A stretch of 33,686 nucleotides of DNA. Origin: Pararhodospirillum photometricum DSM 122. GTDB lineage: Bacteria; Pseudomonadota; Alphaproteobacteria; Rhodospirillales; Rhodospirillaceae. Shown here in pieces: positions 19,860 through 28,558 of the stretch (within the stretch, counting starts at the first letter, position 1; each line of letters begins with the position of its first letter). Under the pieces are notes generated by a model. It did no database searches, had not been told where the DNA came from, and saw only the letters and a list, made by a program, of their open reading frames with translations. The stretch spans positions 2,626,037 to 2,659,722 of the forward strand of contig NC_017059.1 in the NCBI RefSeq assembly GCF_000284415.1. The letters are read 5' to 3'. The position numbers were made by a program, and so were the translations under genes.

Positions 19860-20514
19860 CGATGACCCACCCGCCCTCGCCGCCCGCCGCCCGCCCGGAT
19901 CCCTTCGCCCGCTTTCGCCCGGCCACCCGGGCGCGCATTGGCCTGGGCCGGGCCGGCGATGCCCTGCCGCTTGATGCCCTGCTCGACTTCCAGATGGCCC
20001 ACGCCCTGGCCCGCGACGCCGTCCACGGCGCGGTAGACTGGGACGCCCTGGAAGCCGCCCTGCCCCAGGGGCCGCCCCAATAGGGCGCCTGCGGCGGCTG
20101 CGGTGCCATGCCCCCATAAGGAGCCTGCGGCGGTTGCGGCGCCGCGCCCCAATAGGGCGCCTGCGGCGGCTGCGGTGCCATGCCCCCATAGGGTGCCTGC
20201 GGCGGTTGCGGCGCCGCGCCCCAATAGGGCGCCTGCGGCGGCTGCGGTGCCATGCCCCCATAGGGTGCCTGCGGCGGTTGCGGCGCCGCGCCCCCATAGG
20301 GCGCCTGTGGCGGTTGCGGCGCCATGCCCCCATAGGGCGCCTGCGGCGGGATGCCGGCCCACGGCGCCATATACGGAATGCCAAACGGCCCCGGATGCGG
20401 GGCAAAGGCATGGAGCGGCGGATGGGGCGGCTGCGGCGGGGCGGCGGGGGCGTTGGGATCGGACGCGGTGTTTTCCGGGGCCGAAGTATCGGCCGTCCCC
20501 GAGGAATGGGACAT
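19678..20514 (-). CDS. Pro/Gln/Tyr/Gly 12-residue repeat protein, 3' end probably lost
   Basis: The start is real: ATG at 20514 has a perfect AGGAGG about seven bases upstream. After a Pro/Ala-rich leader of 55 residues (with 'FGIPYMAPWAGI') come seven full copies and one partial copy of a 12-residue unit, PPQAPYGGMAPQ, alternating with PPQAPYWGAAPQ (residues about 56-147). From there (about 20070) the frame is merely the antisense of eutC and the end of eutB, as far as a stop at 19678, so the native C-terminus was probably deleted. Low-complexity, probably disordered; function unknown. It follows the MamC-like gene by 43 bp, on the same strand, and is likely in its operon. Confidence 0.6.
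   Translation of the reverse strand: MSHSSGTADTSAPENTASDPNAPAAPPQPPHPPLHAFAPHPGPFGIPYMAPWAGIPPQAPYGGMAPQPPQAPYGGAAPQPPQAPYGGMAPQPPQAPYWGAAPQPPQAPYGGMAPQPPQAPYWGAAPQPPQAPYGGMAPQPPQAPYWGGPWGRAASRASQSTAPWTASRARAWAIWKSSRASSGRASPARPRPMRARVAGRKRAKGSGRAAGGEGGWVIVRLLGPAGAEPGRHRGPGEAGGPRHRAGPCGPASPRTRGRGAYPRGDAGSRHRDSSSFGS
19862..20083 (+). pseudogene. eutC: Ethanolamine ammonia-lyase small subunit, truncated
   Basis: Only the first 73 codons remain of a protein normally about 250-290 residues long. 'DPFARFRPATRARIGLGRAGDALP' and 'LLDFQMAHALARDAVHGAVDWDALEAAL' are a clear EutC N-terminus. Near 20060-20080 the homology stops and the frame runs into the 36-bp repeats of the opposite-strand gene, where it ends at a TAG. 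The cobalamin-binding parts are gone. A deletion joining eutC to the repeat gene best explains it. Confidence 0.85.
20074..20349 (-). repeat. 36-bp tandem repeats (seven full, one partial)
   Basis: Each 36-bp unit codes for the 12-residue repeat. Over most of the array units alternate between a GGM and a WGA type, giving a 72-bp higher-order period; this indicates growth by duplication of pairs. The array coincides with the eutC break. Confidence 0.9.
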
Positions 20515-20557
20515 GATCACCCTCCTTTGGGCGTGGTATCGGAGGCCGGAAGCTTGC

Positions 20558-20929
20558 TTACGCGGCCGGCGTTGGCGCGGACTCAGGAGCGGCCTTGGCA
20601 GCCGGTTTTCCTTTAGAGTCCATGACATAAAGGGCAGCGGCCCCCGTGGCGATCACGGCGGTCGTGGTCAGCAAGGGCCCACCGCGCAAGGTGGCGGCCA
20701 CCACGGCGCCGAGACCTGTGGCGAGGCCGGTCTTGGCCGCGGTGCCGAGCACGCCGCGCACCGCCTGATCGCGGGTCAAGGTGCCGTCTTTCAGGCCGCG
20801 GGCATGCTCGGCCAAGGCCGCCGTGCCGCCGACCAAGGCGCCCAGGGCCCCGGCGCGCAGCAGGGTCTCGGCGAAGGCATACGTTCCCGGGACATAAGCA
20901 TCGGGAACATGAACCGGGAAATGAGACAT
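20558..20929 (-). CDS. Small glycine-rich membrane protein resembling magnetosome MamC (Mms13)
   Basis: A 123-residue protein with two hydrophobic segments, about residues 24-42 (LLRAGALGALVGGTAALA) and 72-105, and a Pro/Ala tail. Aligned from memory with MamC, it shares LGALVGG-AALA, a basic R-x-LK patch, GLAT-L-AV-AT and AA-Y--D, roughly one third identity over 80 positions. The MamC loop residues that contact magnetite (Glu66, Asp70) are not conserved. Composition bias could inflate the match. ATG at 20929 has AGGGAAG upstream. It lies 44 bp after an HMA_2-like gene and before the repeat protein. Confidence 0.6.
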   Translation of the reverse strand: MSHFPVHVPDAYVPGTYAFAETLLRAGALGALVGGTAALAEHARGLKDGTLTRDQAVRGVLGTAAKTGLATGLGAVVAATLRGGPLLTTTAVIATGAAALYVMDSKGKPAAKAAPESAPTPAA

Positions 20930-20973
20930 GGAGGTCTTCCCTCTCAGGGTGGGGTGTAGCGTGCTCCCGCGAC

Positions 20974-21327
20974 TCAGGGGGCCCGCATGCGCAAGGTGGC
21001 AGCGATCAAGGGGCCGAGTTGGTCCTCCGGGACCGATAGACATTCCCGCCAAAAGGCCTCGGGAATCACCGCCGGGTCATAGGTCACGATGGCGGACTGA
21101 GCCGCAGAATTAAGGCGAACCGACTCGATCCCCACGAACGTTGACAGGTCCGTCAGGGAAAAACGCGCTTTTCCCTGGTCGCGCCCCGCCACAACGCCCA
21201 GGGCTCCCAGCCCGATTTTCAGGCGAACCCGGCCCAAAATGTGATGGGCAATGGTTACATGGGACCGCAAGGATACCATAAGGGATGTAAGATCCTCAAG
21301 TCGGGAGGCGGTATCGGACGACGGCAT
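20974..21327 (-). CDS. HMA_2-like domain protein
   Basis: A 117-residue protein with one ferredoxin-like domain. 'VTIAHHILGRVRLKIG' matches the H-x-x-x-G-R-x-R start of the HMA_2 (heavy-metal-associated 2) family, and 'FVGIESVRLNSAAQSAIVTYDP' the middle strand. It lacks the CxxC of classic metal chaperones, as is usual for HMA_2, so metal binding is unproven. I chose the ATG at 21327, with GAGGG five bases upstream, over an ATG at 21279 without a ribosome site. It is first in a minus-strand set with the MamC-like and repeat-protein genes; the divergent promoter region lies upstream. Confidence 0.7.
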   Translation of the reverse strand: MPSSDTASRLEDLTSLMVSLRSHVTIAHHILGRVRLKIGLGALGVVAGRDQGKARFSLTDLSTFVGIESVRLNSAAQSAIVTYDPAVIPEAFWRECLSVPEDQLGPLIAATLRMRAP

Positions 21328-21683
21328 CAAGACCCTCAATGTGCTGTTGCAGTTGCCAGGGTAGAGGGGGGGGAGTCTCGGGACAAGCCTTACGGCGCCG
21401 AAACGTGATCCCATAATAACCCATTTGTCCTGTCGGAATAAGGGGGCGCGAGCCAATTTCCTAGAGATAAAACCGTTAGTTAGCGGCCGCCTTGGATTGA
21501 CATGAGAATGAGGAGCGTCCTCGCATTGAGTGTTGCGAATGACAACGGCTATCAATACCCTAGGAAACCAAGGGCCTCCCCGGGAAACGTTCCCCCGGTC
21601 CTTTGGAGTCCCAAACGCGGAACAGGCGGTCGATGGCCAGAGCGGTTATCGGCCCGGTTCCCCGGTCGAGGAAAGATGATCCG
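21328..21683. promoter_or_regulatory. Divergent control region of the HMA_2/MamC-like and zinc-ribbon operons
   Basis: 356 bp without a supported gene. It holds an imperfect inverted repeat at 21506-21528 (GAATGAGGA-GCG-TCCTCGCATTG) and a weak Fur-box-like match at 21535-21553 (12 of 19 bases of the consensus). Either could co-control both operons. Confidence 0.4.
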
Positions 21684-22223
21684 ATGCTGCCAACCTCCCA
21701 GGATCCGCTGCGGATAACCCGTGAGAGCCTGTTCGATGACACCGAGGCGGCGGAAAGCCTGCTGCACGCCCTGCGCTGGCCGCGTGGTCGCGCGTTGTGC
21801 CCCCATTGCGGGTTCCGGCACAGCTATCGCCTGACCAACGAACGCACCGGTGCCATCCGCTTTAAATGCGCGCGCTGCCGCAAACAGTACTCGGCGCGGC
21901 GCGGAACGGTTCTCGAGCGCTCCAATGTGGCGACGGGTCGCTGGATCGTGGCGCTGTGGCTGGCCTTGAGTGCGCCGGGGGTGGGGCTGGCCGGGCGCAT
22001 CCAACGCGCGACAGGCGTCAGTCACAAGACGGCCTGGGCCATCGTCAACCGCATTGGTGACCACCCGGAGGATCCGGTTTTCACCGCGTTGCGGCGGGAA
22101 ACGGAGCGCGGCGCTTTGGTCATGGATGCCTTGCTGATCGGCGACGCCGAGACCGCATCACCGGCGCTGCCCCGCCGCCGGGTTCTGCTGGCGCAGGCCG
22201 CCTTGCTGGAGAGCACGCCATGA
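21684..22223 (+). CDS. IS1595-type zinc-ribbon and HTH protein without transposase core
   Basis: A 179-residue protein. The N-terminal half matches the IS1595/ISXO2 transposase zinc ribbon and linker: CPHCGFRHSYRLTNERTGAIRFKCARCRKQYSARRGTVLE (two CxxC pairs), then 'GLAGRIQRATGVSHKTAWAIVNRI', the helix-turn-helix part. The DDE integrase-like domain that should follow (another 150 or so residues) is absent, and no terminal repeats are seen. Since its stop overlaps the next ATG, it looks like a domesticated DNA-binding protein rather than a decayed element. Start at ATG 21684; AGGAAAG lies about 9 bases upstream. Confidence 0.65.
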   Translation: MLPTSQDPLRITRESLFDDTEAAESLLHALRWPRGRALCPHCGFRHSYRLTNERTGAIRFKCARCRKQYSARRGTVLERSNVATGRWIVALWLALSAPGVGLAGRIQRATGVSHKTAWAIVNRIGDHPEDPVFTALRRETERGALVMDALLIGDAETASPALPRRRVLLAQAALLESTP

Positions 22224-22531
22224 GCCAAACTCCCTTGCGGGCGGTAGCCTCCCCCGTCGCAGCGGCCGCCTCTCCCATCGCCGTGGCCAAGCCGACAAAG
22301 ACCGCCAAGTCCGGCGGCATCAAGCAGGAACGGACCTGGGCCAAGAATGCCATGGTCGGGTCGCTGGGGGCCCTGGTTCTGACCGGCTTCATGCTCACCG
22401 GCGGCGGGCGGCGCGACAAGAGCACGCGGCTCGCCCACATTGTGGCTGGGGTGGCTTTGCTGGGAACGTCATACTGGCACACCACGCTCTATGGCCCGGG
22501 GGCCCAACGGCGGCCGGACAGTATTCCATGA
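22220..22531 (+). CDS. Small two-helix membrane protein with H-x13-H helix
   Basis: A 103-residue protein I do not recognise. Residues 1-44 are Ala/Pro/Lys-rich and probably cytoplasmic; hydrophobic segments lie at about 46-62 (VGSLGALVLTGFMLTGG) and 70-86. The second contains His-13 residues-His (LAHIVAGVALLGTSYWH), the same spacing used for stacked haem ligands in b-type cytochromes; a haem role is speculation. It overlaps the genes on both sides by four bases, so all three are translationally coupled. Confidence 0.55.
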   Translation: MSQTPLRAVASPVAAAASPIAVAKPTKTAKSGGIKQERTWAKNAMVGSLGALVLTGFMLTGGGRRDKSTRLAHIVAGVALLGTSYWHTTLYGPGAQRRPDSIP

Positions 22532-23313
22532 CCATGCTCCAGCCCTGGGCGTGGATCGACGCCGTGCGCGATCTTTTTGCCGTGAAGACTATCGGCGTTG
22601 TCTACCAGCCGCTGGTCGATCCGCGCACCGGCGTGGTGGTGGGGCACGAGGCGCTGGCCCGATTTCGCGACACGCAAGGCCGCGCCATCGCGCCGGATCG
22701 GGTGTTCGATGCCTTGCATGGGGCCGGGCCGGGGATTTTGTTCGCCGCCGAGGTGGCCCTCAAGCGCTTTCAGATCCGCTGTGCTCCCGCCGAGGGCCTG
22801 TTGTTCGTCAACTTCGACCCCTGTGCCCTGGCCGGTCTGGAGGCCGGCCGGGCCCAGCGGGTTCTTGATGATCTGCTGGCCTTGCGGCCGCGCGTGGTGG
22901 TGGAACTGATCGAAAACACCCACACCGCCCACGTCGATCTCGTGGAACGGACCACCCGGGATCTTCATGCCCGGGGCATCCCCCTGGCCCTTGACGACAT
23001 TGGGGCGCCGGGGACTTTGCTGTCCTTGTATCAGATGTCGCTGGCTGGCTTTTTGAAGTTCGACCGCCAGTGGCTTCAGCACTGGGGGAAGGATCGTCCC
23101 TTGCTCGACAGCTTGCTGGCCTATGCCCAGGCCACCCGCAAGCGTACCGTCTTGGAGGGCGTGGAAACCGAAGAACAGCTAAAAATCGCCTGCGACAGCG
23201 GGTTTGACCTGATTCAAGGATTTTTGTTCCGCGAGCGCTTTTTGGGATTCGAGGGCCCGCTCAGTGCCTTGAGCCAGGGCCCTTCTTGCCTGCGCTCGGT
23301 GGCGGTCGCCTGA
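22528..23313 (+). CDS. EAL-domain protein, probable c-di-GMP phosphodiesterase
   Basis: A 261-residue protein consisting of little more than an EAL domain. Catalytic elements are present: HEALAR (the EAL), FVNFDP, ELIEN, LALDDIG, LKFDRQW, EGVETEEQ and QGFLF, so hydrolysis of cyclic di-GMP is plausible. The usual DDFGTGYS loop 6 is DDIGAPGTL, a departure that may affect activity or dimerisation. No GGDEF or sensory domain is attached; the N-terminus has only 30 residues before the domain. It closes the three-gene overlapping operon. Confidence 0.85.
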   Translation: MTMLQPWAWIDAVRDLFAVKTIGVVYQPLVDPRTGVVVGHEALARFRDTQGRAIAPDRVFDALHGAGPGILFAAEVALKRFQIRCAPAEGLLFVNFDPCALAGLEAGRAQRVLDDLLALRPRVVVELIENTHTAHVDLVERTTRDLHARGIPLALDDIGAPGTLLSLYQMSLAGFLKFDRQWLQHWGKDRPLLDSLLAYAQATRKRTVLEGVETEEQLKIACDSGFDLIQGFLFRERFLGFEGPLSALSQGPSCLRSVAVA

Positions 23314-28144: not shown

Positions 28145-28558
28145 ATGGCCTATATTCACAGTGTGCCGGGTCGCCTGCGCGTCAAGACCCGCTCATTTCG
28201 CGCGGTGGAAGAGACCCGGCAGCTGTGCCGGAGCCTGGCGACCTGGGACGGGGTGGAGGAAGTCACCTTTAACCCGCGCTCCAACAGTCTCGTCGTGATC
28301 TATGACCCCGCGCGGGTGGTCGAGGACGATCTGCTGGCGGCGATCCGGGCCCAGGGTCATCGGCTACGCCCCGGCACCTCCTTGCTTCACCTGCCCGCCC
28401 CGGTGCCGGCCCCGCCGGCCAAGCTCCCCCTATCCCCGCTGGTGGGTACGGCGGCGGCGGCTTTTGGCGGCGCCTTGGGCAAGGCTCTCGCCGGCGCCTT
28501 GATCAAAAGCACCATCGAACGCGGCGTGGTCGGCTTGGTGAGCGCCGCCATCCGCTAA
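28145..28558 (+). CDS. HMA_2-like protein with glycine-rich hydrophobic tail
   Basis: A 137-residue protein. Residues 1-70 match HMA_2: 'YIHSVPGRLRVKTRSF' (the PGRxR start), 'WDGVEEVTFNPRSNSLVVIYDP' and no CxxC. After a Pro-rich linker (residues 83-98) comes a glycine/alanine-rich amphiphilic tail (LVGTAAAAFGGALGKALAGA..), probably membrane-associated. Start ATG at 28145 with GGGAGA upstream; the ATG at 28094 lies inside the Fur box and is rejected. The Fur box implies expression under iron limitation. It shares its domain with the HMA_2-like protein at 20974-21327, 7 kb away. Confidence 0.78.
   Translation: MAYIHSVPGRLRVKTRSFRAVEETRQLCRSLATWDGVEEVTFNPRSNSLVVIYDPARVVEDDLLAAIRAQGHRLRPGTSLLHLPAPVPAPPAKLPLSPLVGTAAAAFGGALGKALAGALIKSTIERGVVGLVSAAIR

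What the first reader, a model, noticed from the sequence alone, without database searches (positions are those of the whole stretch)
20074..23313. Candidate iron- or organelle-linked module: HMA_2, MamC-like, repeat protein, zinc-ribbon, bis-His membrane protein, EAL
Two divergent sets share one control region. The minus set encodes an HMA_2-like protein, a small glycine-rich two-helix protein that resembles magnetosome MamC over about 80 residues, and a Pro/Tyr/Gly repeat protein with an excellent ribosome site. The plus set has three four-base-overlapping genes: a zinc-ribbon HTH protein, a small membrane protein and an EAL protein. HMA-type and small glycine-rich membrane proteins are known around membrane iron compartments (magnetosomes; ferrosomes with the P1B-6 ATPase FezB). 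Here none of the hallmark genes (FezB, MamB/M) is visible, so a new, perhaps reduced, compartment or membrane-patterning system is inference.
Basis: partly seen in the sequence, partly recalled or inferred. Interest (0 to 1): 0.75.

Follow-up and report, generated by a model that had tools for sequence, protein, structure and literature searches.

The report
Split ferrosome-type iron-organelle gene cluster
These genes look like most of a bacterial iron-storage-organelle (ferrosome-type) gene set whose pump gene sits elsewhere in this genome sequence, and one of them is a distant relative of a protein of magnetic organelles in other bacteria.

Summary
HMA_2, MamC-like and repeat-protein genes lie on the minus strand; divergent from them, zinc-ribbon, bis-His membrane and EAL genes overlap by four bases. 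The MamC resemblance is real (36.8 bits to NCBIfam MamC, below its cut-off of 100; hhalign probability 98.4).

The statement that FezB is absent fails for the genome. The repeat gene is cut inside its 36-bp array; its other half lies at G000:C1:1333.6k, directly before a P1B ATPase with an HMA_2 N-terminus and a D-F-S-C-A membrane motif. In Pararhodospirillum oryzae, Rhodospirillum rubrum and five other genomes the order HMA_2, MamC-like, YtxH-like protein, ATPase is uninterrupted. A further HMA_2/glycine-rich gene usually lies nearby; this window's copy is at 28145-28558. The bis-His protein resembles the ferrosome cytochrome FezC.

Best reading: a fez (ferrosome)-type iron-compartment cluster, split by a chimeric join or rearrangement that also cuts eutC and virJ. 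Most likely new: a MamC-related protein is a conserved part of proteobacterial fez-type clusters, so ferrosomes and magnetosomes would share a membrane component. Organelle formation and iron response are untested, R. palustris fez genes could not be compared, and the window has no significant Fur-like site.

The parts
20974..21327 (-). HMA_2-like protein, 117 aa, first gene of the minus set
   Evidence: Pfam HMA_2 21.1 bits, below cut-off; homologues at the same place in P. oryzae, R. rubrum and G020 (57, 46 and 40% identity)
20558..20929 (-). MamC-like glycine-rich membrane protein, 123 aa
   Evidence: NCBIfam MamC 36.8 bits; hhalign of the family against MamC probability 98.4
20074..20514 (-). 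5' part of the Pro/Tyr/Gly repeat gene (start 20514, 36-bp array 20074-20349); the YtxH-like 3' part is at L023:5614-6093, elsewhere in the genome
   Evidence: TRF; repeat search of the own genome; one uninterrupted gene in P. oryzae, L033:5843-6616
21328..21683 (.). shared divergent control region
   Evidence: sequence; the same divergent HMA_2 / zinc-ribbon layout in R. rubrum and G020; no significant Fur-like site here
21684..22223 (+). zinc-ribbon (IS1595 type) HTH-like protein, possible regulator
   Evidence: Pfam PF12760 E 3.2e-12; hits in 7 of 12 ATPase-bearing genomes
22220..22531 (+). FezC-like bis-His membrane protein, 103 aa, two predicted helices (34-60, 67-91; mean pLDDT 62)
   Evidence: DUF4405 matched by 14 of 16 family members at E up to 0.1, this member at 0.093, best 3.4e-5; His73 and His87 invariant; low-confidence model
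22528..23313 (+). EAL-domain protein, seen in the same order in P. oryzae only
   Evidence: Pfam EAL; tblastn over loci held
28145..28558 (+). HMA_2 plus glycine-rich helix protein, further fez-type component outside the finding
   Evidence: the R. rubrum homologue follows the ATPase gene directly
19862..20083 (+). eutC cut at the array: marks the chimeric join
   Evidence: EutC model positions 2-56 here and 40-235 at G000:C1:133350-133919; the two pieces share 28 exact bases

Best explanation
This is most of a ferrosome (fez)-type gene cluster of a Pararhodospirillum. A FezB-like P1B ATPase would load Fe(II) into membrane vesicles; HMA_2 proteins would dock or pass metal; the MamC-like protein and the YtxH-like protein with its Pro/Tyr/Gly-rich arm would pack into and shape the organelle membrane; a dimer of the FezC-like bis-His protein would move electrons to keep stored iron in the right redox state. 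In this genome sequence the cluster is cut inside the repeat gene, so the ATPase sits 1.3 Mb away. Shown here: gene content, homology, conserved order and the cut. Inferred: substrate, organelle, the role of each protein, and whether the cut is an assembly error.
For: The repeat array occurs at two places only (8 and 4 matches); the second leads into a TM segment and the ATPase. HMA_2, MamC-like, YtxH-like and ATPase genes are contiguous in P. oryzae, R. rubrum, G020, G454, G455, G456 and G061. A MamC-like profile made only from 14 proteins like the window's finds a member in 6 of 80 named P-type ATPase loci, all 6 among the 27 with a D-[FY]-[SAT]-C motif and none among the other 53. FezC is a DUF4405-like homodimeric cytochrome (PMC10979944, passages), and 14 of 16 members of the window's bis-His family match DUF4405 at E up to 0.1. 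The Firmicutes loci with the motif that I examined have DUF6110 proteins just upstream. Iron genes flank two of the four plasmid copies read: TonB receptors and FeoA in Cereibacter, an iron ABC transporter in Azospirillum.
Against: The R. palustris and Desulfovibrio fez genes were not available for comparison (none). The YtxH-like protein is only weakly like the Firmicutes DUF6110 proteins (probability 13.5). The window's own bis-His protein matches DUF4405 only at E 0.093, and its model is poor. No significant Fur-like site in the window. In R. rubrum the FezC-like gene lies away from the cluster, behind another ATPase. Loss of function by the cut is possible if the cut is real. Assignment of the D-F-S-C-A motif to the P1B-6 class is from recall.
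Confidence: 0.68

Rival explanations
1. A metal-efflux platform without an organelle: the ATPase exports iron or another metal at the cytoplasmic membrane, and the small glycine-rich proteins and the repeat protein cluster it, as PacL proteins do for CtpC.
For: Same logic of small TM proteins with repeat-rich cytosolic parts beside a P1B ATPase (PMC9374683, start of abstract in a listing). The small proteins carry no catalytic domain.
Against: The FezC-like cytochrome and the D-[FY]-S-C-A motif point to the fez type; the MamC likeness points to an organelle membrane.
Confidence: 0.22
2. The split is a genuine chromosomal rearrangement, so this strain carries a broken, perhaps dead, cluster.
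For: Two foreign genes, eutC and virJ, are cut at the array joins and their remainders lie elsewhere.
Against: The two eutC pieces share 28 exact bases at the break, which suits a misjoin of short overlaps; three intact genes would have been broken at once. Not decided here.
Confidence: 0.15
3. One reading: a new, reduced compartment without a P1B ATPase.
For: No ATPase lies in the window as assembled.
Against: The ATPase follows the repeat gene's other half in the same genome and is contiguous with the module in relatives.
Confidence: 0.03

Closest known systems
Ferrosome (fez) clusters: Desulfovibrio magneticus, Rhodopseudomonas palustris RPA2333-2338, Clostridioides difficile fezA-fezB
   Same: P1B ATPase with small membrane proteins and, in the D. 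magneticus type, a FezC-like DUF4405 cytochrome (passages)
   Different: MamC-like protein, Pro/Tyr/Gly repeat arm on the YtxH-like protein, zinc-ribbon and EAL genes; split in this genome sequence. Whether the R. palustris operon has the first two could not be checked
Magnetosome protein MamC (NCBIfam NF038051)
   Same: Significant profile similarity over 84 columns; NCBI already names the P. oryzae and R. rubrum homologues 'magnetosome protein MamC'
   Different: Scores below the family cut-off; stands beside a P1B ATPase in relatives; the K-E pair invariant in five MamC proteins is not kept
PacL-CtpC metal-efflux platforms of mycobacteria
   Same: Small TM protein with a repeat-rich cytosolic region beside a P1B ATPase (start of abstract in a listing)
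   Different: No sequence comparison made; here also FezC-like and MamC-like parts

Membership tests
Ferrosome (fez) cluster | FezB-type P1B ATPase in the cluster | tested here: met
   D-F-S-C-A-x-K ATPase contiguous in relatives and attached to the other half of the split gene in this genome; that FezB is of class P1B-6 with this motif is recalled
Ferrosome (fez) cluster | FezC-like DUF4405-type bis-His cytochrome | tested here: inconclusive
   14 of 16 family members match DUF4405 at E up to 0.1, best 3.4e-5, own member 0.093; two invariant His; heme binding not tested
Ferrosome (fez) cluster | FezA-like small membrane protein | tested here: inconclusive
   YtxH-like protein against DUF6110 proteins of Firmicutes loci: probability 13.5; YtxH matched by 4 of 18 members
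Ferrosome (fez) cluster | Same gene set as a proven operon (R. palustris RPA2333-2338) | not testable with these tools
   No named Rhodopseudomonas locus was returned; primary paper not held
Ferrosome (fez) cluster | Forms iron-filled membrane compartments; iron-regulated | not testable with these tools
   Needs microscopy and expression; the Fur-like site scan in the window was not significant (144 of 300 shuffles as good)
Magnetosome MamC | Reaches the NCBIfam MamC cut-off of 100 bits | tested here: not met
   36.8 bits
Magnetosome MamC | Common descent with MamC (profile level) | tested here: met
   hhalign probability 98.4, E 4.7e-15, 84 columns; controls 0.4 and 0.7
Magnetosome MamC | Loop residues conserved in MamC | tested here: not met
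   K48-E49, invariant in five MamC rows, align with G-T here; a role of acidic loop residues in magnetite binding is recalled
Magnetosome MamC | Lies among magnetosome genes | not tested
   Other mam genes were not searched genome-wide; neighbours in the window are not recognisable as such

The most novel reading that the evidence does not exclude
A MamC-family membrane protein is an ancestral, conserved component of proteobacterial fez-type iron compartments, so magnetosomes and ferrosomes share a homologous membrane protein: MamC would be a ferrosome protein recruited to magnetite, or the reverse.
Probability: 0.5. Interest if true: 0.8.

Novelty: new variant of a known kind. Interest (0 to 1): 0.62.

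Why it matters
If right, Rhodospirillum-type phototrophs carry a ferrosome-type system, and two lipid-bounded iron organelles treated as separate share a homologous membrane protein. R. rubrum, a laboratory strain with HMA_2, MamC-like, YtxH-like and ATPase genes uninterrupted, would make the origin of MamC and its role in membrane or mineral control directly testable. The case also shows how one cut in a repeat hid a hallmark gene.

Tried and rejected
Rejected: an ATPase-free reduced compartment (the ATPase was found through). Rejected: the repeat ORF below 20074 as coding (antisense to eutC). Rejected as filing: the protein as MamC proper (cut-off not met).

Controls and results against the reading: FezC-like and YtxH-like profiles against MamC gave probability 0.4 and 0.7. 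Of 4600 shuffled sequences (4599 reported) the best reached 15.3 bits; the 7 P0015-type members of 23 do not exceed it, so their link to MamC is indirect: all 38 P0015-type proteins match the profile of the 14 window-like proteins at 18.2 bits or more, and both sets carry the precomputed Pfam label PF26373 (14 of 14, 37 of 38), a family the copy here does not hold. In the NCBIfam scan 5 of 23 members also gave a weak dihydroorotase match (best E 1.5e-4), taken as chance. The hits in P. oryzae, R. rubrum, G061 and the other Rhodospirillaceae are partly hits to the profile's own seeds; the repeat with a profile without the G061 seed still finds G061 (5e-7) and the six named loci (1e-12 to 0.003), but no longer Azospirillum. 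A PDB sequence search with the MamC-like profile found nothing convincing (best E 0.052). Promoter scan: none found. Fur-like palindrome: shared by G020, G454, G455 and G456, from which it was derived (0 of 300 shuffles as good in each), 7 of 300 in R. rubrum, not significant in the window (144), P. oryzae (205) or G061 (59). FezA identity: inconclusive. In one search two MamC rows (L027, L028) were on the wrong strand; one search has them right. No fold search was run because the models are of middling and low confidence (mean pLDDT 73.5 and 62.4).
Full report
Setting. The window is G000:C1:2626037-2659722 of a one-contig genome of 3,876,289 bases. Its same-genus relative G001 has the cluster on a 98,683-base contig, and the homologue P0002 on a contig of that length is named Pararhodospirillum oryzae; so the genus is Pararhodospirillum (the size fits P. 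photometricum DSM 122, from recall). G027 is Rhodospirillum rubrum by the same reasoning (contig of 4,352,825 bases). G456 fits Rhodospira trueperi (114,599 bases).

What is in the stretch. Minus strand: HMA_2-like (21327-20974), MamC-like (20929-20558), and a repeat gene starting at 20514 that runs into a 36-bp array. Plus strand: an IS1595-type zinc ribbon, a 103-residue bis-His membrane protein and an EAL protein, with two four-base overlaps.

The cut. With up to two mismatches the array pattern occurs at two places in the genome: the window (8 matches) and G000:C1:1333559-1333685 (4 matches). At the second place it leads into a transmembrane-plus-coil segment and then a P1B ATPase with an HMA_2 N-terminus. 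In P. oryzae one gene holds both halves (L033:5843-6616). On the other side of each join a foreign gene is broken: eutC in the window (the rest at 133350-133919) and virJ at 1333550 (the rest at 1146387, with one stop inside). The two eutC pieces share 28 exact bases at the break; R. rubrum has the start of eutC directly behind eutB. A misjoin is the likeliest cause, but reads are needed.

The cluster in relatives. HMA_2, MamC-like, YtxH-like and ATPase are contiguous in P. oryzae, R. rubrum, G020, G454, G455, G456 and G061. Of 73 family genomes 11 have the ATPase at E up to 1e-120; of 387 class genomes 3 at E up to 1e-150, the own genome included. Of the 12 ATPase-bearing genomes pooled from these, 8 have a clear MamC-like gene in the cluster (the own genome, split, counted), G450 a weak one (E 0.004), G004 none found, and in G006 and G012 the contig ends next to the ATPase. 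Among 80 named P-type ATPase loci, a capped list, the MamC-like profile made without any of them hits 6: Hahella, Rhodomicrobium, Desulfarculaceae, Sulfurospirillum, Rhodobacter capsulatus and a gammaproteobacterium (E 1e-12 to 0.003). All 6 are among the 27 loci whose ATPase has a D-[FY]-[SAT]-C motif; the other 21 of these, with Mailhella, many Firmicutes and some archaea, have no hit, and neither do the other 53 loci. Four of the 12 plasmid records were read: the same layout is in Cereibacter and Vibrio (3e-5 and 3e-14 with the stricter profile), weakly in Arcobacter (0.008), and in Azospirillum only with the wider profile (0.011).

MamC. A profile of 23 fez-associated proteins against five true MamC proteins gives hhalign probability 98.4, E 4.7e-15, over 84 columns, while two other small membrane families of the same cluster give 0.4 and 0.7. 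NCBIfam MamC is matched by 17 of 23 at E up to 0.01. In 61 genomes the MamC model found 9: five above the cut-off and four below it (own, P. oryzae, G020, R. rubrum); each of these four belongs to an ATPase cluster, split in the own genome. None of 14 control genomes rang. A model of the window's protein has helices 17-48, 53-80 and 87-105 (mean pLDDT 73.5). NCBI already labels the P. oryzae and R. rubrum proteins 'magnetosome protein MamC', so the label is not new; the context is what I add.

FezC and the rest. PMC10979944 (passages) reports that the ferrosome protein FezC is a DUF4405-like homodimeric cytochrome. The window's bis-His protein belongs to a family in which 14 of 16 members scanned match DUF4405 at E up to 0.1, the window's own only at 0.093, and two His are invariant. 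Hits to it occur in 9 of 12 ATPase genomes, those in G006 poor and with a stop; it is beside the cluster in G020, G454, G455, G456 and G061, on another contig in P. oryzae and far away in R. rubrum. In A. brasilense an HMA_2 and FezC-like fusion stands in the cluster. A further component, HMA_2 plus glycine-rich helix, is in the window at 28145-28558; its homologue follows the ATPase in R. rubrum, G454, G455, G456 and G061, and lies near in G020. In P. oryzae zinc ribbon, FezC-like and EAL stand in the window's order, next to that HMA_2-glycine gene, on another contig. EAL was found in no other genome among the loci held, so it looks genus-specific.

Mechanism. Most likely the ATPase loads Fe(II) into a membrane compartment, the HMA_2, MamC-like and YtxH-like proteins build or organise it, and the FezC-like dimer handles iron redox. 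These roles are inferred from homology. An efflux platform like PacL/CtpC is the main rival. Regulation by Fur is not supported in the window, although some relatives share a palindrome. The R. palustris fez genes rpa2333-2338 fell at low light together with many iron genes (PMC6879726, passage).

Literature. The 2022 ferrosome paper is not held and the 2023 one was not sought. Papers used were seen as passages or listings. Searches for ferrosome with MamC (4 listed, 1 read in passages, where MamC is only a fluorescent label), for MamC with R. rubrum and P-type ATPase (none), for fez-cluster terms (3 listed) and for MamC with non-magnetotactic and Rhodospirillum (3 listed, not read) showed me no statement of the MamC link. 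This is no proof that it is unpublished.

Noticed in passing
window 19862-20083; L021; L023: eutC and virJ are each cut at the repeat array, with their remainders elsewhere in the contig: other chimeric joins may exist in this genome sequence.
   Followed up: partly
   Followed up: yes
L024:5556-7718: A second HMA_2-bearing P1B ATPase with a CPC motif; its P. oryzae homologue is next to the FezB-like gene.
   Followed up: partly
L034, L050, L051, L052 upstream of HMA_2: A palindrome like ATTGCGA-N5-TCGCAAT in the shared control region of four relatives, absent as a significant site in the window.
   Followed up: partly
L138:3064-3540: In Azospirillum brasilense an HMA_2 domain is fused to a FezC-like bis-His segment.
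   Followed up: partly
L174:5598-5885: In R. rubrum the FezC-like gene is directly behind another HMA-type P-type ATPase, a few kb from eutBC and away from the fez-type cluster.
   Followed up: no
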